DNA from: Aureimonas pseudogalii
GTDB lineage: Bacteria; Pseudomonadota; Alphaproteobacteria; Rhizobiales; Rhizobiaceae
NCBI RefSeq assembly: GCF_014196835.1
Contig: NZ_JACIEK010000002.1
Span: 62,001-126,000 of the forward strand
Direction: 5' to 3'
DNA length: 64,000 bases
Shown here: piece by piece, positions 8,820 to 18,062 of the stretch
Position numbering within the stretch: position 1 is the stretch's first letter
Layout: each line of letters opens with the position of its first letter
Notes under the pieces: generated by a model
Told to the model about the DNA's origin: nothing
Databases searched by the model: none
The model's input: only the letters and a program-made list of their open reading frames with translations
Translations under genes and position numbers: made by a program

Positions 8820-10190
8820 TCAGGTGTTCATCGAGTCGAAGAAGTCGCCGTTGGTCTTCGTCTGCTTGAGCTTGTCGTTGAGGAACTCGATCGCGTCGGT
8901 CGTGCCCATCGGCGAGAGGATGCGGCGCAGCACGAAGATCTTCTGCAGGTCGCCGCGCGGCACGAGGAGGTCTTCCTTGCGGGTGCCGGACTTGAGGATG
9001 TCCATCGCCGGGAAGATGCGCTTGTCGGCCACCTTGCGGTCGAGCACGAGCTCGGAATTGCCGGTGCCCTTGAACTCCTCGAAGATCACCTCGTCCATGC
9101 GCGAACCCGTGTCGATGAGGGCGGTGGCGATGATCGTGAGGGAGCCGCCCTCCTCGATGTTGCGCGCCGCGCCGAAGAAGCGCTTCGGCCGCTGCAGGGC
9201 GTTGGCGTCGACGCCGCCCGTCAGCACCTTGCCGGAGGAGGGCACCACCGTGTTGTAGGCGCGCCCAAGGCGGGTGATGGAATCGAGCAGGATCACGACG
9301 TCGCGCCCGTGCTCGACGAGGCGCTTGGCCTTCTCGATCACCATCTCGGCCACCGCCACGTGGCGCGTCGCCGGCTCGTCGAAGGTGGAGGAGACGACCT
9401 CGCCCTTCACCGAGCGCTGCATGTCGGTCACCTCTTCCGGCCGCTCGTCGATGAGCAGCACGATGAGGTAGCACTCGGGATGGTTGGCGGTGATGGAATG
9501 GGCGATGTTCTGCAGGAGCACCGTCTTGCCGGTGCGAGGCGGCGCCACGATGAGCGCGCGCTGGCCCTTGCCGAGCGGGGCCACGAGATCGATCACGCGG
9601 GCCGAGAGGTCCTTTCGCGTGGAATCGGGATGTTCCATCTTGAAGCGCTCGTCCGGGTAGAGCGGCGTCAGATTGTCGAAATGGCTCTTGTGCTTGATCT
9701 TTTCGGGATCGTCGAAATTGATCGTGTTGACCTTGAGCAGCGCGAAATAGCGCTCGCCGTCCTTGGGCCCGCGGATCGTGCCCTCCACCGTGTCGCCGGT
9801 CTTGAACGAGAAGCGGCGGATCTGCGACGGCGAGATGTAGATGTCGTCGGGGCCGGGCAGGTAGTTCGCCTCGGGCGAGCGCAGGAAGGCGAAGCCGTCC
9901 TGCAGGATCTCGACGACGCCCTCGCCGATGATCTCGATGTCCTGCGCGGCCAGGCGCTTGAGGATGGCGAAGAGCAGTTCCTGCTTGCGCAGCGTCGAGG
10001 CGCTCTCGACCTGGTTCTCCTCGGCGAAGGCGACGAGATCGGCGGCGGTCTTGTTCTTCAGGTCCTGAAGCTTGATCTCGCTCGGCCGGGCGTCGGTGCC
10101 CTTCTGCGCCTCGTGCGGCGTCGCTCCGCTCTCGCTCGCATGGCCCAGCGGCTCGTCGATCGGGAGTTCGGGTGTCGTGATCTCTGACAT
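8820..10190 (-). CDS. rho: Transcription termination factor Rho
   Basis: Rho is a hexameric RNA-dependent ATPase-helicase that releases nascent RNA. Domains in order: an N-terminal helical Rho_N segment ([19 protein letters not shown], about 39-57), an RNA-binding cold-shock-like domain with [20 protein letters not shown], and a RecA-like domain with Walker [14 protein letters not shown] and Walker [17 protein letters not shown]. At 456 residues it is longer than E. coli Rho because of an acidic N-terminal extension of roughly 36 residues before the usual KLQDLK start. The start at 10190 gives [10 protein letters not shown]; the frame is open further upstream, but that part looks like non-coding sequence. 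A strong terminator follows the gene. Confidence 0.97.
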
Positions 10191-10475
10191 GGAAGGCTTG
10201 GGCTCCGCCCCGGAAGCTCGGCCCGGACACGCTGGTCGCGGGGCTGCCCTCGAGGGTGTTCGTCGGACGGGGAAAGGTCGGGCCGGACTACGGGATGCGT
10301 ATGATCTGGCTGCGAGAGGCGGGACGCGGGCTGAACAGCCGGTCCGCACCGAAAGGCGGGATACGGGAAGACGTATAGCCGCGCGGCGAAGCGCACGCAA
10401 GATGGCCCGCGAGCGGCCACCACCTTCGCGTGAAAGCTCGATCCTCCCACCCCGGGCCCGGGCCGGCGGGGGCGC

Positions 10476-11030
10476 TCAGTGCGCGCGCAGCACCGCGGCG
10501 TCGCCGAGGTCCAGCCGCTGCAGCGCCTCGGCCGCCACCGCCTCGGGGGCCTGCGCCACCGAGACGCGCACGCCGTCCTCGCCCTCTTCGAGCGGCTGGA
10601 AGTCGGCATATTGCGAGGCGAGCAGCGAGGCCGGCATGTAGTGGCCCTTGCGCGCGGCGAGCCGGGTGCCGACGAGCTCGGGGTCGGCCTCGAGCTCCAC
10701 GAAGCGCACCCGCGCCTCGGCGCCGCGCAAGACGTCGCGGTAGCGCCGCTTCAGCGCCGAGCAGGTGATCACCGTGCTCTCGCCCATTCCCGCCTCGTCG
10801 GAGATCCAGTCGCGGATGAGGGCGAGCCAGGGCGCGCGGTCGGCATCGTCGAGGGGCAGGCCCGCCGACATCTTCTCGATATTGGCCTTGGGGTGGAATT
10901 CGTCGGCCTCGGCGAACTTCCAGCCGAGCCGCTGCGACAGGAGCCGGGCGGTGGTGGTCTTGCCCGTGCCGGACGGTCCCATCACCACGAGGCAGGTTGC
11001 GGGGCGGGCGCGGGCAGGGGACGAAGGCAA
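10476..11030 (-). CDS. gntK: Gluconokinase (GntK type)
   Basis: The enzyme phosphorylates D-gluconate to 6-phosphogluconate for the Entner-Doudoroff or pentose phosphate routes. Seen: the P-loop VVMGPSGTGKTTTARLL near residue 15, ADEFHPKANIEKMSAGLPLDD (substrate region, very conserved in the family), and VITCSALKRRYRDVLRG. The length of 184 residues is normal. It lies between rho and hemJ with wide gaps on both sides (285 and 122 bases), so it is probably transcribed alone. Nothing recognisable was seen in the 10191-10475 gap. Confidence 0.93.
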   Translation of the reverse strand: MPSSPARARPATCLVVMGPSGTGKTTTARLLSQRLGWKFAEADEFHPKANIEKMSAGLPLDDADRAPWLALIRDWISDEAGMGESTVITCSALKRRYRDVLRGAEARVRFVELEADPELVGTRLAARKGHYMPASLLASQYADFQPLEEGEDGVRVSVAQAPEAVAAEALQRLDLGDAAVLRAH

Positions 11031-11152
11031 GGGCTGGGATCTCCCGGACGGGGTTGCGAGGGCGGCAGGCTTCCGAGAAGGACCGCGCCCTCAAGATCGC
11101 ACGGGGGCCGCGAAAGGCAAGCCGGCTTTGCCGGCGACGTGGCCGGAGCGCC

Positions 11153-11719
11153 TCAGAAGGGCTTGACGATCACCAGCACGACGATGAGCACGAGAAGCAC
11201 CGTCGGCACCTCGTTCATCATCCGCCAGTGCTTGGCCGACTTGGTGATCTCGTCGCGCTCCAGGCGCTTGCGCGAGGCCGAGAAATAGCCGTGCGCGCCG
11301 GTCATCAGCACCACCAGCAGGATCTTGGCGTGCAGCCAGCCGCCCTGGAAGGCGAAGACCTCGATCGCCATCCACAGGCCGGAGACCCAGGTCACCACCA
11401 TCGCCGGGTTGATGATCGCCCGCATCAGGCGCCGCTCCATCACCTTGAAGGTCTCGGCCTGCGGCGATCCGGCGCCGGCCTCGGTGTGGTAGACGAAGAG
11501 GCGCGGCAGGTAGAGCATGCCCGCCATCCACGAGATGACGGCCACGACGTGCAGCGCCTTGACCCAGAGCTGCGCCCCGAGCGGCACGAGAGCGAAGAGC
11601 ACGAGCGCCAGCACCGCGCCGGCGCCGAGCGCGGCCAGCACCGAGCGATCCCTGGGCGTGCGGGTGCCGACCGGGCCGGGCGTGACGAACTCGGGAAGGG
11701 GAGGGGTCTTGGCGGCCAT
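11153..11719 (-). CDS. hemJ: Protoporphyrinogen IX oxidase HemJ
   Basis: HemJ is a membrane haem protein that oxidises protoporphyrinogen IX to protoporphyrin IX, the penultimate step of haem synthesis. Seen: about four hydrophobic membrane segments and the diagnostic stretch KALHVVAVISWMAGMLYLPR with its conserved histidine, then RLFVYHTEA. The C-terminal MMNEVPTVLLVLIVVLVIVKPF forms the last helix. At 188 residues it is somewhat long because of a hydrophilic N-terminus of about 25 residues. It is on the same strand as hemE, 197 bases downstream of it, and belongs to the same pathway. Confidence 0.93.
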   Translation of the reverse strand: MAAKTPPLPEFVTPGPVGTRTPRDRSVLAALGAGAVLALVLFALVPLGAQLWVKALHVVAVISWMAGMLYLPRLFVYHTEAGAGSPQAETFKVMERRLMRAIINPAMVVTWVSGLWMAIEVFAFQGGWLHAKILLVVLMTGAHGYFSASRKRLERDEITKSAKHWRMMNEVPTVLLVLIVVLVIVKPF

Positions 11720-11916
11720 GGCGGAACCTTCGGGGGAAGCGGGCGCCGGGAGGGGCGTCCGGAAAGCGGGAACGGTCGGTCCTGCCTAGTCGAGAACGGT
11801 TCCAGGCGAAAGCGGACGGGTTGTCCTCGGCCAGTCACCAATGGCTCAGCTGTTCACCAGCGGCGCCGGCCGCTCACCGGCAGCGCCGCCCCTCGAACGA
11901 GGCCCCGGCGATCCCC

Positions 11917-12936
11917 TCAGCCGCGCACGCGCCGCAGCAGCGCCTCGACATGGGCGATCGGCGCGTCCGGGGTGATGCCGTGGCCGAGATTGAAGATCAG
12001 CGGTCCCGCCCCGAGCTGATCGAGGATGGCGTCGACGCCTTCCTCCAGCGCCCGCCCGCCGGCGATGAGGCGCAGCGGATCGAGATTGCCCTGCACCGGG
12101 CCGCCCCGCTGCAGCGCCGCGCCGTGCGAGAACGGTACCGACCAGTCGAGCCCGATGGCGTCGACGCCGGTGCCCGAGCGGTAGCGCTCGAGCAGCGGCC
12201 CCGCGCCCTTGGCGAAGCCGATGATGCGCGCCGCCGGCACGCTCGCACGCACCCGCTCCACGATGCGCCGCGTCGGGCCCACCGAGAAGCGCTCGAAGGA
12301 GAGTTCGTCCAGCACCCCGGCCCAGCTGTCGAAGATCTGCACGCAGTCCGCCCCCGCCCGGAGCTGGCGGATGAGGTAGTCGGCGCTCATCTCGGCGAGC
12401 AGCGCCAGGAGGGCGTCCATCTCGGCGGGATGGCGATAGCCGAAGAGCCGGGCGGGCGCCTGGTCGGGCGTGCCGTGGCCGGCGATCATGTAGGTCGCCA
12501 CCGTCCAGGGTGCGCCGCAGAAGCCGATGAGCGCGGTCTCAGTCGGGAGCTCGGCGCGCAGCCGCGCCACCGTCGCGATCACCGGCGCCAGATGCGTCTC
12601 GGCATGGGTGGGATCGAGCGCCGCGATCTCGTGCGGGGCGATCGGATCCATCTGCGGACCCTCGCCCACCACGAAGCGCACGTTGCGCCGCAGTGTGTCG
12701 GGGATCACGAGGATGTCGGAGAAGAGGATCGCCGCGTCGAAGCCGAAGCGCCGGATCGGCTGCAGCGTTACCTCCGTCGCGAGATCGGGATTATAGCAGA
12801 GGTCGAGGAAGGAGCCCGCGGCGGCACGGGTGGCGCGGTATTCGGGAAGATAGCGACCGGCCTGGCGCATCAGCCACACGGGGGGCGGCGTCACCGTCTC
12901 GCCGGCGAGGACGCGCAGAAGCTTTCGCTGTTCCAT
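11917..12936 (-). CDS. hemE: Uroporphyrinogen decarboxylase HemE
   Basis: HemE removes four carboxyl groups from uroporphyrinogen III to give coproporphyrinogen III. Seen: the signature [17 protein letters not shown] near the N-terminus, [24 protein letters not shown], and [10 protein letters not shown] near the C-terminus. The start at 12936 gives [13 protein letters not shown] and 339 residues, the normal length; the upstream in-frame extension is basic and looks non-coding. HemE sits beside the replication origin in many alphaproteobacteria, and here its upstream side faces the 780-base oriC candidate. Confidence 0.97.
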
Positions 12937-13098
12937 GGGGATCTTTCGAGGGTGGGGCGGGCGGGCGAAGAGCGCGCTTCGCGTCTGAAGGCGAGGACAT
13001 GACGCGTCGCCGCCCTTGCGTCCAGTCCTCGCCTTCTTCCTTGCGTCGATCGGTCGGGGACGCTCGGCTCGGCTTTTCCCGTCCGGCCCTTTTAGAAG

Positions 13099-13135
13099 AG
13101 AATCCAAGGATTCTAGGATTCTGATTCTATGAGTC
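13099..13135. repeat. Inverted/direct repeat array carrying five GANTC (CcrM) sites
   Basis: AGAATCC-AA-GGATTCT (13099-13114) is a perfect inverted repeat. It is followed by a second AGGATTCT and then GATTCTATGAGTC. GANTC sites start at 13100, 13109, 13117, 13123 and 13131. GANTC is the CcrM methylation target in alphaproteobacteria; methylation here is inferred. Confidence 0.75.
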
Positions 13136-13277
13136 GGTGAATAGCAGGGATCAACAGGGCGCCCGAAACGACGCGCGCATCGGCACGCCGCCCTCGCCCT
13201 CGCGCATCCGCCGCAACCCGCTGCTTCGCCGAAGACATATCGGCAAGCGACCCGACTGCCGGATCGGCCCGTCCCCG

Positions 13278-13329
13278 TTTTTCACAAGCTCCTTTCCACA
13301 AGCCTGCCCGGAGTATGTTCTGTGGACGA
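13278..13329. promoter_or_regulatory. Cluster of DnaA-box-like sequences
   Basis: TTTTTCACA at 13278-13286 fits TTWTNCACA fully. CTTTCCACA at 13292-13300 has one mismatch. TGTGGACGA at 13321-13329 is a reverse-strand box with two mismatches. DnaA binding is inferred. Confidence 0.5.
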
Positions 13330-13717
13330 CGGGTGGGTTATCCCGGCGGCCCGGGCGAGGCCGGGACAATTGGCCGACTTGTCCGCACTCGCCCACAGGG
13401 CGGCGGAATCTGCGGGCACAAACCGGGCGCCCGCTTGCGGTTCCCGAGCGAATCGAGTCCGCCCTCGCCATGCACCCGGCTCGATCCGCGCGTAAGATCG
13501 AGCGATTTTCCGGGGAATGCCACCGAACGAATGCGAGCCGGTTCGCAAAACCGCTCTTAATGGTTATTAAAGCCGCCAAACTTGAAGAAAACACTAACGT
13601 TAAGGCTCTTCGGGAAGGTTTTCGAAGCTCGTGTTATCAGGTCTTAACGGTGGTCCATCCCGTCGTTTCGCACCCGAACAGAGCTCGATCATGCCGAGTG
13701 TTGAGGCAAGGATTCTC

Positions 13718-14317
13718 ATGACGAAGCCCATCGTTCTCGCCTCCGGCAGCATCCATCGGCGCGAACTCCTGAAGAATGCCGGCGTCGACGTCACCGTCGA
13801 TCCGTCCTCGCTCGACGAGCGCGCGCTGGAGGCGCCGCTGACCGGCAGCGGCCTCGCACCCGAGGAGATCGCCGCCGTTCTTGCCGAAGCCAAGGCCGCC
13901 GACGTCTCCAAGCGCCATCGCGGCGCGCTGGTGATCGGCGCCGACCAGACGCTGTCGCTGGGCGACACGATGTTTCACAAGCCCGCCGACATGGAGGCCG
14001 CGCGCCGCACGCTGCTGGCGCTCGCGGGGCGCACCCACCAGCTGACGAGCGCCGTGGTGATCGTCGAGGACGGCAGCGTGACCTGGCGCCATGTCGGGGT
14101 CGCCCGCATCACGCTGCGCCCGCTCGTTCCCGGCGAGATCGGCCGCTACCTCGCACGGGCGGGCGACGCCATCCTCACCAGCGTCGGCGCCTACCAGATC
14201 GAGAAGCAGGGCATCCAGCTGATGGAGCGCATCGAGGGCGACTTCTTCACCATCATCGGCCTGCCGATCCTGCCGCTCGTGGCGGAGCTGCGGGCTCGCG
14301 GCGCGATCGATGGCTGA
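13718..14317 (+). CDS. maf: Maf-family nucleotide pyrophosphatase
   Basis: Maf/YhdE-like enzymes hydrolyse non-canonical or canonical nucleoside triphosphates to monophosphates. Seen: the N-terminal motif [16 protein letters not shown] (SxSxxR type), the middle motif LVIGADQTL, and [21 protein letters not shown], all Maf signatures. The start at 13718 ([11 protein letters not shown]) has AAGGA upstream and gives 199 residues; the frame is open to 13631, but that extension is atypical. It overlaps aroE by eight bases, so the two are translationally coupled. Confidence 0.95.
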
Positions 14318-15212
14318 TCTCGCGATGCCCGTCCTGTCCCGTCCCGCCGGATCGTCGCTGGAGGGCCCGCGCGCCTTCGTCGCCGGCTGGCCGATCGCCC
14401 ATTCGCGCTCGCCGCTGATCCACGGCTTCTGGCTGGAGGAGCACGCGCTTCCCGGCGCCTACGAGCGCGCGGGCGTGCCGCCGGAAGAGTTTGCGGCCTT
14501 CCTCCAGGGCCTGCGCGCCGCCGGCTGGACGGGCGGCAACGTCACCATTCCCCACAAGGAGGCCGCCTTTGCCGCCGCCGATCGGCGCGACGGGGCGGCC
14601 GAGGCGATTGGCGCGGTGAACACGCTGTGGTTCGAGGGGGATCGCCTCGTCGGCGGCAACACCGACGCCTACGGCTTCTCGGCCAATCTCGACGAGCGGC
14701 TCAAAGGCTGGCGCGATGCGCAGAACGCCGTCGTGCTCGGCGCCGGAGGCGCGGCGCGCGCCGTGGTTCAGGCGCTGGTCGAGGCGGGGATCGGCGAGAT
14801 CGCCGTCGCCAACCGCAGCCGAGATCGCGCCGAGCGGCTGGCCGCGGATTTCGCCGGCCGCGGCGCGCGCCTCGTGGCCCTCGACGACGCCGGGCTGGCG
14901 AGCCGCCTCGCCGGCACCGACCTCCTCGTCAACACGCGCCCGTCCGAAAAGGGCGGCGGCGCGGCGCAGGGCGCCGCCGAGACCTCGCTCGAAGGGCTCG
15001 CCCCCGCCGCCCTCGTGACCGACATCGTCTACGTGCCGCTGGAGACGCCGTTCCTCGCCGAGGCACGCCGGCGCGGCCACCGCACCGCCGACGGGCTGGG
15101 TATGCTGCTGCATCAGGCAGTGCCCGGCTTCGAGCGCTGGTTCGGCGCACGCCCGAACGTGACGCCGGCCCTGCGGGCGCGTATCCTCAACGATATCGAC
15201 GCCGCGCGCTGA
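14310..15212 (+). CDS. aroE: Shikimate dehydrogenase AroE
   Basis: AroE reduces 3-dehydroshikimate to shikimate with NADPH in aromatic amino-acid synthesis. Seen: the substrate-binding start [23 protein letters not shown] with the catalytic lysine, the conserved GAVNTL and GNTDAYGF (catalytic aspartate), and the dinucleotide loop [10 protein letters not shown]. Its length of 300 residues includes a short N-terminal extension. It overlaps maf. A later gene of the pathway, aroA, closes the window on the same strand. Confidence 0.96.
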
Positions 15213-15314
15213 TCTCCCGCCATCCGGCGGCGCGGGCCGCCATCGGCCCGGCCGTCCGCCGCCTCAATCCCGCTCCGGCGATCCGTCGCCGGTGCGCGCA
15301 GAAGGACTTCCCCC

Positions 15315-15761
15315 ATGGACGAGCGCTCCCCCCATCCCCTGTTCGAGCCCGCGCCGAGCGACGCCCATGACGCCGAGGACGCGATCGAGGATCTCTTCAC
15401 CGCCTATGCCGGCGGCTTCGACGATTTCGACGCCGCCGCCATCGCCGCCTGCTTCGCCTTTCCCGTCACCATCTGGCAGGCGGGCCGCGGCAACGTCTTC
15501 GCCGACGAGGCCGAACTGACGGAGAACATCGAGGCGCTGCTCGCCGTGTTCGAGCGCGAGGAGATCGTGCATTCGACCTACCGCACGATCGAGGCGGCGG
15601 GCGACGGGGCCAGCGCCTTCGCCGTGCTCGACTGGCGCCAGGAGCGCGAGGACGGCGAGGCGGCGCTGGAGTTCCGCTGCCGCTACGCGCTCGTTCGCAT
15701 CGAACCCGAGCGGGATGCGGATGGCCCGGTCTGGCGCATCGCCTTCGCCGTGAACGACTGA
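15315..15761 (+). CDS. NTF2-like / SnoaL-fold protein of unknown role
   Basis: This is a 148-residue acidic protein. Seen: [33 protein letters not shown], the typical start of an NTF2-like cone fold, then [21 protein letters not shown] and a C-terminal beta-rich half. No catalytic residues could be assigned. It ends five bases before coaE and starts 102 bases after aroE, so it is probably in the maf-aroE-coaE operon. The function is unknown. Confidence 0.75.
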
Positions 15762-15766
15762 CCGCC

Positions 15767-16378
15767 ATGATCGTCCTTGGCCTCACCGGCTCGATCGGCA
15801 TGGGCAAGTCGACGGCGGCCGCAATGTTCGCGGCGCTCGGGTGCCCCGTTCATTCTGCCGACGAGGCGGTGCACCGGCTCTACAGTGGTCTCGCCGCGCC
15901 GCTCATCGAGGCGCGCTTTCCCGGCACGCTTGCCGGCGGCACGGTGGACCGCGCGGCGCTCGGGACCCGCGTTCTCGGCGACGCCGCGGCGCTGCGCGAT
16001 CTGGAGGCGATCGTTCATCCGCTGGTGCGGGCCGAGGAGGCACGGTTCCTGCGCGAGGCGCACGAGGCCGGCGCGCGCCTCGCGGTGCTCGACATTCCCC
16101 TCCTGTTCGAGACCGGCGGCGAGACCCGCGTCGATCGCACGCTCGTCGTCACCGCGCCCCCCGAGGTGCAGCGGGCGCGGGTGCTGGCCCGCCCCGGCAT
16201 GACGCCGGAGCGCTTCGAGGCGATCCTGGCGAAACAGATGCCGGACGCCGAGAAGCGACGGCGCGCCGATCTCGTCGTGGACACCGGCGCCGGGATGGCG
16301 GCGACGCAGGCCGAGATCCGGCGCATCGCCGCGATGCTTCTGCTTGAGGACGAAAACAAAAAGGGAACAGGCGTTTAG
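15767..16378 (+). CDS. coaE: Dephospho-CoA kinase CoaE
   Basis: CoaE phosphorylates the 3'-hydroxyl of dephospho-CoA, the last step of coenzyme A synthesis. Seen: the P-loop [18 protein letters not shown] at the very N-terminus, [11 protein letters not shown], and [13 protein letters not shown] in the lid/catalytic region. The length of 203 residues is normal. Another CoA gene, coaA (pantothenate kinase), is at 41 kb. It lies in the order aroE-coaE-dnaQ that is conserved near the alphaproteobacterial origin. Confidence 0.95.
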
Positions 16379-16468
16379 CGCAGGGGAGAAGCCCGTTCAT
16401 CGCGCATCAAGCCGCTTGCGGCACGACCGGGAAGGCCCGACATGAAGGGGCGGACACCGGAGAGCCCC

Positions 16469-17191
16469 ATGCGCGAGATCGTCTTCGACACAGAAACCAC
16501 CGGCCTCGACTTCGCACAGGACCGCGTCATCGAGATCGGCGGCATCGAGCTCTGGAACCACATCCCGACGGGGCGCGACTACCACTGCTTCATCCGGCCC
16601 GAGGGCCGCAAGGTCGATCCGTCCGCCTTCGACATTCACGGCCTCTCCGACGAGTTCCTGCGCGACAAGCCGGTCTTCGCCGAGATCGTCGATGACTTCG
16701 CCGCCTTCTTCGACGGCGCGCGGCTGATCGCCCACAACGCTGCCTTCGACATCCGCTTCCTCAATGCCGAGCTCGGCCGGCTCGGGCGCCCGGCGATCGA
16801 GCCCGGCCTCGTGATCGACACGCTGCCGATGGCGCGGCGCAAGTTTCCGATGGCGCCGGCGACGCTCGACGCGCTCTGCTCGCGCTTCCAGATCGACACG
16901 AGCAAGCGCGAGAAGCACGGCGCGCTCGTCGATTCCGAGCTTCTGGCGCAGGTCTATATCGAGCTGATCGGCGGCCGGCAGTCGGCGCTGCGGCTCGTCA
17001 CCGACGCCGACGGGCTGGACGAGCGCGGCGTGGAACTCGCGCCGATGCGCGTGCCGCCGCGCCCCGTGGCGCTCGCGCCGCGCCTCAGCCCCGCCGAGAT
17101 CGACGCCCACGCCGCCTTCGTCGCGACGCTCGGCCCCGATGCGCTCTGGCCGAAGGTGCTGGGCTCGGCGCAGGCCGTCGCCGCCGAGTAG
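16469..17191 (+). CDS. dnaQ: DNA polymerase III epsilon subunit (3'-5' exonuclease) DnaQ
   Basis: DnaQ is the proofreading exonuclease of the replicative polymerase. Seen: the DEDDh residues in FDTETTGLD (Asp, Glu), HNAAFDIRFL (Asp), and HGALVDSELL (His, Asp). A C-terminal tail of about 50 residues with ALWPKVLG would contact the polymerase. The start at 16469 gives MREIVFDTETTG, the usual beginning, with GGAGAG six bases upstream. A start nine codons earlier (16442) also has a GGAAGG site and cannot be excluded. It converges on secB. Confidence 0.95.
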   Translation: MREIVFDTETTGLDFAQDRVIEIGGIELWNHIPTGRDYHCFIRPEGRKVDPSAFDIHGLSDEFLRDKPVFAEIVDDFAAFFDGARLIAHNAAFDIRFLNAELGRLGRPAIEPGLVIDTLPMARRKFPMAPATLDALCSRFQIDTSKREKHGALVDSELLAQVYIELIGGRQSALRLVTDADGLDERGVELAPMRVPPRPVALAPRLSPAEIDAHAAFVATLGPDALWPKVLGSAQAVAAE

Positions 17192-17208
17192 CCGCTGGCT
17201 TGGCCGCG

Positions 17209-17349
17209 ATGGTGCGCCGGCCTATGCTGGCGCGGATGAGCCTCGCTGCCGATCCCGTTCCTTCGGTCGAGGCGGCGGAGCGGCTGGCCGAAGCCTTTCC
17301 GGCAGCGGTCGAGCGCTTCCGCCGAACGGTCGATCCCGAAACCGACTGA
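17209..17349 (+). CDS. Possible 46-residue small protein after dnaQ
   Basis: The frame ATG (17209) to TGA (17347-17349) gives MVRRPMLARMSL and then an amphipathic helix rich in Ala, Glu and Arg (SVEAAERLAEAFPAAVERF). A shorter start at 17236 gives 37 residues. No clear ribosome-binding site was seen, so expression is uncertain. It lies between dnaQ and the secB terminator. No family was recognised. Confidence 0.25.
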   Translation: MVRRPMLARMSLAADPVPSVEAAERLAEAFPAAVERFRRTVDPETD

Positions 17350-17360
17350 GCGTTCCCGAC

Positions 17361-17392
17361 GAAAAAGGCGCCGCCGGGGATGCCGGGGCGCC
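17361..17392 (-). terminator. Rho-independent terminator of secB
   Basis: GGCGCC arms at 17367-17372 and 17387-17392, with a partly self-complementary CCGG interior, form a G+C-rich stem. On the minus strand the stem is followed directly by TTTTTC. It lies 29 bases after the secB stop. Confidence 0.75.
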
Positions 17393-17421
17393 TCGTTCTC
17401 AACTTTCGGATCGATGAGCCG

Positions 17422-17922
17422 TCAGACGGTCTGGACCTGCTGGCGGGCGCGCTCCTCGGCCATGCGCTGCGTGAACAGCGCCGAGAAGTCGATGGGGTCG
17501 ATCATCAGCGGCGGAAAGCCGGCATTGCGCGTGACGTCGGCGACGATCTGGCGCGCGAAGGGGAAGAGCAGGCGCGGGCACTCGATGAAGAGCAGCGGCA
17601 GCATGTGCTCCTGCGGGAAGTGCTCGAGGCGGAAGACGCCGCCATATTCGAGTTCCACGTGAAACAACGTGTCGGCGCCCTCGCCGGCGCGCGCGTTCAG
17701 CGTCAGGCGCACGTCGTACTCGCCCTCGCTGCCAGCCACCGCGTTGGCGCCGACATTGACGCCGATGTTGATGCCGGGCGCCCGCGCCTGGCCGCGCAGC
17801 GAGGCCGGCGCCTTCGGGCTCTCGAAGGAGAGATCCTTGATGTACTGGGCGAGAATGCTGAGGTTCGGGGCTTCCGGGGTCGCGCCGTTTCCGTTCACGG
17901 GCGGCATGGTGGTCTCGGACAT
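17422..17922 (-). CDS. secB: Protein-export chaperone SecB
   Basis: SecB is a tetrameric cytosolic chaperone that keeps preproteins unfolded and delivers them to SecA. Seen: [20 protein letters not shown] at the N-terminus, [13 protein letters not shown], and [36 protein letters not shown], the family core. The start at 17922 ([11 protein letters not shown]) is chosen because GGAGG is six bases upstream of it; the ATG two codons earlier lies against that site. The result is 166 residues. A parS-like site lies inside the gene at 17651-17666. Confidence 0.96.
17651..17666. promoter_or_regulatory. parS: parS-like centromere site inside secB
   Basis: AGTTCCACGTGAAACA carries the core TTCCACGTGAAAC, and 14 of its 16 bases match the consensus TGTTTCACGTGAAACA. 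It lies in the secB coding sequence about 16.4 kb from the rsmG site. ParB binding is inferred. Confidence 0.75.
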
Positions 17923-18062
17923 GGACATCCTCCGAAGGGTCGGCGCCAAGCGCCGGTTGGGCGTCACGCGGCGCCGTGGATCGGTGCGGCAGCTATCACG
18001 CGGGGGCCGCGAGAACAAGGCGAGGTCCGGCGGCGCAAGCGGCGCGGCCGGCCGGTGCGGGC

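What the first reader, a model, noticed from the sequence alone, without database searches (positions are those of the whole stretch)
13080..13660. Five GANTC sites in 36 bases beside DnaA-box-like sequences: candidate oriC with CcrM control
The hemE-maf gap carries GANTC at 13100, 13109, 13117, 13123 and 13131, set in an inverted repeat (AGAATCC-AA-GGATTCT) plus direct repeats, and four more GANTC sites at about 13406, 13450, 13455 and 13711. Nearby are TTTTTCACA, CTTTCCACA and a reverse box, and an AT-rich TTAA-containing block at 13557-13648. CcrM methylates GANTC and couples methylation to replication in alphaproteobacteria, and origins there lie next to hemE. Such density in very G+C-rich DNA is far beyond what one expects by eye. 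The repeat array could be a methylation-sensitive initiation or timing switch.
Basis: partly seen in the sequence, partly recalled or inferred. Interest (0 to 1): 0.72.

Follow-up and report, generated by a model that had tools for sequence, protein, structure and literature searches.

The report
Replication origin core carrying methylation sites
The cluster of five methylation sites lies in what is very probably the chromosome's replication origin, where the initiator protein appears to dock and open the DNA, and the same arrangement recurs across a large bacterial family, so the old question of whether this methylation controls replication becomes directly testable.

Summary
In detail: five GANTC sites fill 13100-13135 and nine lie in 616 bases, in DNA that otherwise avoids GANTC. 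The gap is very probably oriC: GC-skew minima of two complete congeners lie within about 9 kb of the hemE gap, three parS-like sites are near, and weak DnaA boxes cluster in it. The array is the gap's least stable DNA and, in ten congeners, its most conserved block. It is an element found once in this genome: a DnaA-box-like 9-mer, GANTC as spacer, four NAN triplets whose central A is invariant in 116 of 116 aligned copies, then an AT-rich tract. A model finds it in 273 of 297 family genomes; in one genome where hemE left the locus, the element stayed. GANTC sits in the spacer in 107 of 116 copies and is 3.7-fold over-represented just beyond. So CcrM sites are built into the predicted DnaA docking and unwinding core. 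That methylation switches initiation is not shown: published CcrM data for Caulobacter and for Agrobacterium ori1 argue against a strict requirement, and no SeqA relative was found. New variant of a known kind.

The parts
11917..12936 (-). hemE, the flanking gene whose upstream gap holds the element
   Evidence: translation; Pfam URO-D E 3.4e-107
13691..14317 (+). maf, the other flanking gene (start at 13691 or 13718 not decided)
   Evidence: translation; Pfam Maf E 1.1e-44
12937..13690 (.). hemE-maf gap, very probably the chromosomal replication origin
   Evidence: skew in congeners, parS-like sites, box cluster, element; two ORFs across it match no Pfam family
13136..13144 (-). core DnaA-box-like 9-mer CTATTCACC (3 mismatches to TTATCCACA)
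13131..13135 (-). core GANTC (GACTC), spacer between box and triplets
   Evidence: GANTC at these columns in 107 of 116 rows though they were masked in the profile
13118..13129 (-). four NAN triplets (TAG-AAT-CAG-AAT), central A invariant
   Evidence: A at +7, +10, +13, +16 in 116 of 116 rows; run of four at offset 6 in this genome
13123..13127 (-). second GANTC (GAATC), overlapping the triplets
13117..13121 (-). third GANTC (GAATC), overlapping the triplets
13109..13113 (-). fourth GANTC (GAATC), in the AT-rich tract
13100..13104 (-). fifth GANTC (GATTC), in the AT-rich tract
13089..13134 (.). least stable 46 bases of the gap; predicted unwinding tract
   Evidence: rank 101 of 391,421 windows of the contig
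13278..13286 (+). weak DnaA box TTTTTCACA
   Evidence: region partly conserved in congeners
13292..13300 (+). weak DnaA box CTTTCCACA
   Evidence: region partly conserved in congeners
13321..13329 (-). weak DnaA box TCGTCCACA (TCATCCACA in several congeners)
13379..13387 (+). weak DnaA-box-like TTGTCCGCA
13389..13397 (+). weak DnaA-box-like TCGCCCACA (3 mismatches), in a conserved CTGTGGG block
13450..13459 (-). tandem GANTC pair GACTCGATTC
   Evidence: present in 19 of 23 Aureimonas/Aurantimonas loci
13406..13410 (+). single GANTC (GAATC) between the boxes and the tandem pair

Best explanation
The hemE-maf gap is the chromosomal replication origin. The GANTC array is its core: a weak DnaA box, a GANTC that serves as the spacer, four DnaA-trio-like triplets (two overlapped by further GANTC sites) and an AT-rich tract that melts. 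DnaA gathered on the weak boxes at 13278-13397 and on the core box would seize the triplet strand and open the tract. Because CcrM sites are written into the docking and opening sequence, each firing turns this stretch from fully to hemi-methylated, and it stays so until CcrM acts late in the cycle (CcrM timing is published knowledge). The most likely use is a tuning of how readily DnaA can dock on and open a just-fired origin, through the DNA itself, as no SeqA relative was found. Shown here: position, conservation, single occurrence, low stability, GANTC enrichment. Inferred: DnaA binding, melting, methylation of these sites, any effect on timing. My odds: oriC 0.95; array is the docking and unwinding core 0.75; methylation measurably tunes initiation 0.4.
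For: Skew minima at 1,034,358 in G003 (hemE 1,041,822-1,042,835) and 261,342 in G007 (hemE from 254,631) within the contiguous stretches examined. Three parS-like sites against 0.02 expected. Box cluster densest of the contig in 150-bp windows. Element found by a profile with the GANTC columns masked in 116 of 136 loci; best score of shuffled sequences -4.4 against a cut-off of 8. One match in 5.0 Mb at E up to 10. 273 of 297 family genomes, 106 of 109 genera. In G061 the element lies between a kinase-PPPase gene (ydiA type) and a UPF0093 gene (hemJ type) followed by rho, with no hemE in the 14 kb. Invariant A at +7, +10, +13, +16 in 116 of 116. Beyond the core GANTC 148 against 40.1 expected; control palindromes 47/31.0, 26/18.6, 27/23.1. 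CcrM-type RAMA domain in the own genome and 292 of 297 family genomes; GcrA present.
Against: Caulobacter without ccrM keeps normal control of initiation. In Agrobacterium, depleting or over-expressing CcrM did not change ori1. 32 of 116 elements have a single GANTC and one has none, so a dense array is not needed. Boxes are weak: 58 of 116 core 9-mers have 4 or 5 mismatches. In 754-bp windows the box density of this gap is tied by a place at 388 kb. The triplets lie on the strand of TTATCCACA; on the other strand, which from recall and the numbering I take to be the published polarity, runs of three or more occur in only 8.6% of rows, against 40% in shuffles. The masked profile was seeded with 80 loci chosen by a GANTC-containing pattern, and its own columns include the triplets, so the 107 of 116 and the 116 of 116 are partly helped by how rows were picked. 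Rows share ancestry. The own contig's skew shows no clear minimum. No family genome of good quality lacks the CcrM-type domain (273 of 273 have it), so loss could not be tested.
Confidence: 0.7

Rival explanations
1. The element is the origin core, but its GANTC sites are incidental: the sequence is conserved for DnaA contacts, happens to contain GANTC, and methylation there has no effect.
For: ori1 of Agrobacterium is indifferent to CcrM level; Caulobacter without ccrM initiates normally; many family members keep one GANTC only (32 of 116).
Against: GANTC is 3.7-fold over expectation beyond the core while three control palindromes are 1.2 to 1.5-fold; the free base of the core GANTC varies (96 C, 11 G) while GA and TC stay; the site count rises to 3-5 in several genera.
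Confidence: 0.35
2. The array is a CcrM- and GcrA-controlled promoter for hemE (or for the hemE-hemJ-rho side), and its conservation reflects transcription, not replication.
For: It lies upstream of hemE in the sampled loci; GcrA and a CcrM-type protein are encoded.
Against: Distance to hemE ranges from 61 to 433 bases among elements; in G061 hemE is gone and the element stays, though a hemJ promoter is still possible; authors report no transcription at the S. meliloti oriC gap (passage; that this gap is the one beside hemE is recalled, not checked).
Confidence: 0.1
3. An unknown protein that binds hemi-methylated GANTC sequesters the origin, as SeqA does in E. coli.
For: Dense sites in the unwinding core recall the Dam sites of the E. 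coli 13-mers.
Against: No SeqA-family match in 21 genomes; elements with one site could hardly be bound in that way.
Confidence: 0.12
4. Chance cluster of GANTC without function.
For: None found.
Against: 0 of 2000 random placements; conserved spacing in the genus and family.
Confidence: 0.01

Closest known systems
Caulobacter crescentus Cori (hemE-linked origin)
   Same: Beside hemE (recalled); weak DnaA boxes; several GANTC in the origin of Caulobacter and close relatives is already in print (passage)
   Different: Here GANTC is the spacer between DnaA box and triplets and is conserved through a family; CtrA sites are not convincingly present, and a review says CtrA sites are not seen in oris outside Caulobacter, Rickettsia possibly excepted
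E. coli oriC with Dam and SeqA
   Same: Methylation sites inside the unwinding repeats (13-mers GATCTnTTnTTTT; 11 GATC in oriC); box beside an AT-rich tract
   Different: GANTC and CcrM, not GATC and Dam; no SeqA relative; TTGT and TTATT, needed in E. coli, are not enriched (8 and 19 of 116; shuffles 32.1 and 24.4), whereas TTCTT and ATTCT are (82 and 75; shuffles 14.1 and 14.8)
Basal unwinding system (DnaA box, spacer, DnaA-trios)
   Same: Box, short spacer, at least three NAN triplets with a conserved central A
   Different: Spacer of 6 bases that is a CcrM site plus one base; triplets on the strand of TTATCCACA, which I take (recall) to be opposite to the published polarity; box weaker than the published limit of 2 mismatches in 89 of 116 rows
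repABC replicons such as A. tumefaciens ori2
   Same: GANTC-rich origin; over-initiation when CcrM is in excess
   Different: Initiated by RepC, not by DnaA

Membership tests
DnaA-dependent chromosomal oriC | GC-skew minimum at the locus | tested here: met
   Two complete congeners, minima 6.7 and 8.5 kb from the hemE gap in contiguous stretches, with coarse sampling round the chromosome; own contig inconclusive
DnaA-dependent chromosomal oriC | DnaA-box cluster and an easily melted tract | tested here: met
   Four 9-mers with 2 mismatches in 110 bp, densest 150 bp of the contig; array ranks 101 of 391,421 for low stability; but no strong box
DnaA-dependent chromosomal oriC | autonomous replication and marker-frequency peak | not testable with these tools
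   needs experiment
hemE-linked alphaproteobacterial origin (Cori type) | adjacent to hemE | tested here: met
   in relatives
hemE-linked alphaproteobacterial origin (Cori type) | CtrA sites TTAA-N7-TTAA (consensus recalled) | tested here: inconclusive
   one match with 1 mismatch at 13557; 20 of 100 shuffles have at least one; block not conserved
Basal unwinding system (DnaA-trio) | at least three NAN triplets within 16 bp of a DnaA box | tested here: met
   116 of 116 on the box's own strand, 104 of 116 at offset 6
Basal unwinding system (DnaA-trio) | triplets on the strand opposite to TTATCCACA (polarity from recall) | tested here: not met
   8.6% of rows have three or more on that strand, fewer than in shuffles
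Basal unwinding system (DnaA-trio) | box with at most 2 mismatches to TTATCCACA | tested here: not met
   27 of 116 rows meet it; the window's core box has 3 mismatches
Dam/SeqA-type sequestration | SeqA homologue | tested here: not met
   0 of 21 genomes; of 14 control genomes only E. coli rings
CcrM-controlled locus | CcrM-type methyltransferase encoded | tested here: met
   RAMA domain over the cut-off at G000:C6:207171-207455; the catalytic domain was not tested separately
CcrM-controlled locus | sites methylated, with an effect on function | not testable with these tools
   needs methylation data and mutants

The most novel reading that the evidence does not exclude
A protein-free methylation switch built into the origin: CcrM sites form the spacer and overlap the DnaA-trio-like triplets, and the adenine methylated on the triplet strand falls on the same register in 75 of 75 sites, the base next to the adenine that DnaA is known to read. 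Hemi-methylated after firing, the core would be a poor docking and opening site until CcrM restores it, with the number of GANTC sites (0 to 5 per element) setting the strength of the switch by lineage.
Probability: 0.22. Interest if true: 0.85.

Novelty: new variant of a known kind. Interest (0 to 1): 0.6.

Why it matters
Whether CcrM methylation acts directly on a DnaA-dependent chromosomal origin has stayed open: GANTC sites are known in the Caulobacter origin, yet removing ccrM there does not upset initiation. Here is a short element, conserved through a family and found once in the genome, in which a CcrM site separates the DnaA box from the opening triplets, and in which the number of sites varies from 0 to 5 between lineages. 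That gives a natural dose series and a precise in vitro substrate. If methylation does tune opening, it would be a way to restrain re-firing without a SeqA protein; if it does not, a long-held suspicion can be laid to rest. It also gives a simple marker for the main origin in this family.

Tried and rejected
Chance clustering: rejected. The AT block at 13557-13648 as opening site: less likely. The inverted repeat AGAATCC-AA-GGATTCT as the functional unit: rejected, seen in this genome only. hemE promoter as the sole role: weakened by G061. SeqA: no relative found. A structured RNA: no Rfam match at gathering score in 9000-18000. A protein gene in the gap: the two longest ORFs across it match no Pfam family. 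A natural knock-out of CcrM: none usable; the 5 of 297 without a hit are incomplete or contaminated assemblies (66-96% range of completeness, one with 8% contamination), and three of the five carry the element. Published DnaA-trio polarity: not met. E. coli motifs TTGT and TTATT: not enriched.

Limits of the comparison. Of 139 loci assembled, one was dropped as too short (L195) and two as duplicates (L032, L034), leaving 136. G045 was not fetched because its hemE lies at a contig end, and G038 had no hemE match; a later model search found nothing in G045 and only E 0.17 in G038. Of 21 loci from outside the family, 4 have the element by the profile score (L120, L122, L127, L193). Three of the genus genomes are single contigs; G003 and G007 were sampled for skew, G005 was not. 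In one search, 24 of 297 family genomes gave no match (with stricter filters), including G026, G348 and G404 of genus group g7 (1.0 to 1.3 Mb), although G279 of that group has it. The profile was seeded by a pattern that contains GANTC, and model R1 was built from 50 of the rows with the GANTC columns included.

Literature limits. Ten searches in an open-access library only; I recall subscription papers on the Caulobacter and Sinorhizobium origins and have not seen them. In these searches no paper was seen that describes a GANTC between DnaA box and unwinding triplets; 5 papers hold both 'GANTC' and 'DnaA box', 1 holds 'CcrM' and 'unwinding element', and I read passages of only some of them. 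What I saw: PMC11514494 abstract, passages and section 23; PMC3973325 passages and section 15; PMC8287927 passages and section 13; passages of PMC8725594, PMC10721633, PMC2245857, PMC4468827, PMC6090056, PMC5742627 and PMC10316083. Other papers were seen as listings only.

Full report
What was checked. GANTC is avoided in this DNA: 56 in 64 kb against a mean of 342 in dinucleotide shuffles, 0.99 per kb over the 391-kb contig C2. Five in 36 bases is the densest such spot in the contig; random placement of the contig's 389 sites gave five in 36 bases in 0 of 2000 trials and nine in 620 bases in 0 of 2000. Three places have four or more GANTC in 150 bases: this array, a stretch upstream of dnaA, and a spot at 377762-377829.

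Is it the origin? The genome belongs to a genus that includes Aureimonas: two named Aureimonas records are identical, in the 400 bp before hemE, to unnamed same-genus genomes. In the complete congener G003 the cumulative GC skew over 859501-1132000 has its minimum at 1,034,358, beside hemE at 1,041,822-1,042,835. Forty coarse samples of 20 kb round that chromosome alone would put the minimum at the 859-kb sample, with a rise from the 955-kb sample on, and the maximum at about 2.8 Mb; the contiguous stretch refines this. In G007 the minimum over 1-368000 is at 261,342, hemE starting at 254,631, and the coarse maximum is near 1.74 Mb. Skew in the own contig is weak and does not decide. Three parS-like sites, each with two mismatches to a recalled consensus, lie within 16 kb of the array; 0.02 expected. 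No 9-mer within one mismatch of TTATCCACA exists in the window, but four with two mismatches lie in 13278-13387, the densest 150 bp of the contig; counted in 754-bp windows the gap ties with a place at 388 kb. Weak boxes are also described for Caulobacter (passages).

What the array is. I took the DNA upstream of hemE from 139 loci, dropped one as too short and two duplicates, and scanned 136 with a profile from which the five GANTC columns were left out; it was seeded with 80 loci chosen by a pattern that does contain GANTC, then iterated. 116 loci score over 8; the best of the 136 shuffled sequences scored -4.4. The genomes of L055 and L109 have it elsewhere (E 0.0018 and 1.2e-6). In that of L055 it sits between a kinase-PPPase gene (ydiA type) and a UPF0093 gene (hemJ type) followed by rho, with maf and aroE on the far side and no hemE in the 14 kb. 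In that of L109 it precedes another hemE, with the same neighbours. So the element follows the locus, not hemE, though the hemJ-rho side could still use a promoter there. L121 belongs to a 1.1-Mb genome with no match. In G000 the element is found once: one match in 5.0 Mb at E up to 10. In the family 273 of 297 genomes match at E up to 0.1, 106 of 109 genera. In an order-wide draw 8 of 150 matched at E up to 0.01, 5 of them family members.

Anatomy. Reading on the hemE strand: a DnaA-box-like 9-mer, GANTC with no gap, one base, then four triplets NAN whose central adenines at +7, +10, +13 and +16 are A in 116 of 116, then an AT-rich tract (AT 0.73 in the element against 0.47 to its left, 112 rows). 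The profile used to pick rows includes these columns, so the invariance is in part a condition of entry. Box mismatches to TTATCCACA are 0 in 1, 1 in 3, 2 in 23, 3 in 31, 4 in 51 and 5 in 7 rows; random 9-mers mostly have 6 to 8. A run of four or more NAN on this strand occurs in 116 of 116 against about 20% of shuffles; on the other strand runs of three or more occur in 8.6% against about 40%. Published DnaA-trio origins have box, spacer and at least three NAN, and B. subtilis has a GC-rich 5-mer between boxes and triplets (passage). Here the 5-mer is a CcrM site. The strand of the triplets seems opposite to the published polarity; that comparison rests on recall and on residue numbering, and is either a real difference or a reason for doubt. 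Several relatives outside the family show a box followed by CAA, AAC or AAG runs (for example L193, L125, L272), which favours the triplet reading. The array is the least stable 46 bases of the gap, rank 101 of 391,421, and the best conserved block of the gap in ten congeners.

Is GANTC itself selected? At the masked core 107 of 116 have GANTC, 96 GACTC and 11 GAGTC; of the nine others five are family loci and four are not. Beyond the core, 5600 bp in 112 rows hold 148 GANTC against 40.1 in dinucleotide shuffles; TCNGA 47 against 31.0, AGNCT 26 against 18.6, CTNAG 27 against 23.1. Rows share ancestry, so these are not independent events. Elements carry 0 to 5 GANTC (1, 32, 33, 31, 14 and 5 rows). 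Within the triplets 75 of 75 top-strand methylatable adenines fall on the same register, beside the central A and never on it; shared ancestry may explain this too. 273 of 273 family genomes of good quality encode a CcrM-type RAMA domain, so there is no natural knock-out to test.

What it does. The parsimonious reading is an oriC core in which CcrM sites are part of the DnaA docking and unwinding sequence. In E. coli the 13-mers GATCTnTTnTTTT likewise carry Dam sites and SeqA binds the hemi-methylated origin, but no SeqA relative was found in 21 genomes. A direct effect is plausible because B. subtilis DnaA reads the amine of the central adenine of each triplet (passages), but the methylated bases are neighbours of that adenine, so this step is inference. 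Against a strict switch: Caulobacter without ccrM controls initiation normally, and Agrobacterium ori1 does not respond to CcrM depletion or excess while ori2 does. The three Agrobacterium elements sampled have one or two GANTC (L046, L058, L089), so lineages with three to five remain untested.

Novelty. GANTC in the origins of Caulobacter and close relatives is in print (passage), and oriC beside hemE is established knowledge. What I did not see in ten searches of an open-access library is a GANTC as the spacer between box and triplets, conserved through a family. I file it as a new variant of a known kind.

Noticed in passing
L150 13731-14238 (contig C2 373731-374238): Second GANTC cluster: ten sites in 508 bp, eight in the gap between rpsT and a rhodanese-like gene that is followed by dnaA, two at the end of rpsT; so the initiator gene and the origin lie beside the two richest GANTC stretches of the contig.
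   Followed up: partly
window 13450-13459: Tandem GACTCGATTC-type pair in 19 of 23 Aureimonas/Aurantimonas loci; 18 of these 19 rows show TGTGG about 60-70 bp further on.
   Followed up: partly
L269 5085-8323: In Pseudaminobacter soli hemE has left the origin locus while the kinase-PPPase gene, the element, the UPF0093 gene and rho stay.
   Followed up: yes
L193, L125, L272: Outside the family the box is followed by runs of CAA, AAC or AAG triplets, strikingly DnaA-trio-like.
   Followed up: partly
L091: A record titled Bacillus subtilis SK6B4 carries a rhizobial hemE and this element; probably mislabelled or contaminated.
   Followed up: no
window 12937-13690: The kinase-PPPase gene (ydiA type) that lies between maf and the element in L268 and L269 is not in this gap; the two longest ORFs here match no Pfam family.
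   Followed up: partly
G026, G348, G404: Three genomes of 1.0 to 1.3 Mb in one genus group gave no match to the element although a fourth (G279) did; their origin may have changed.
   Followed up: no
window 1250, 17651, 28641: Three parS-like sites spread over 27 kb around the origin.
   Followed up: no
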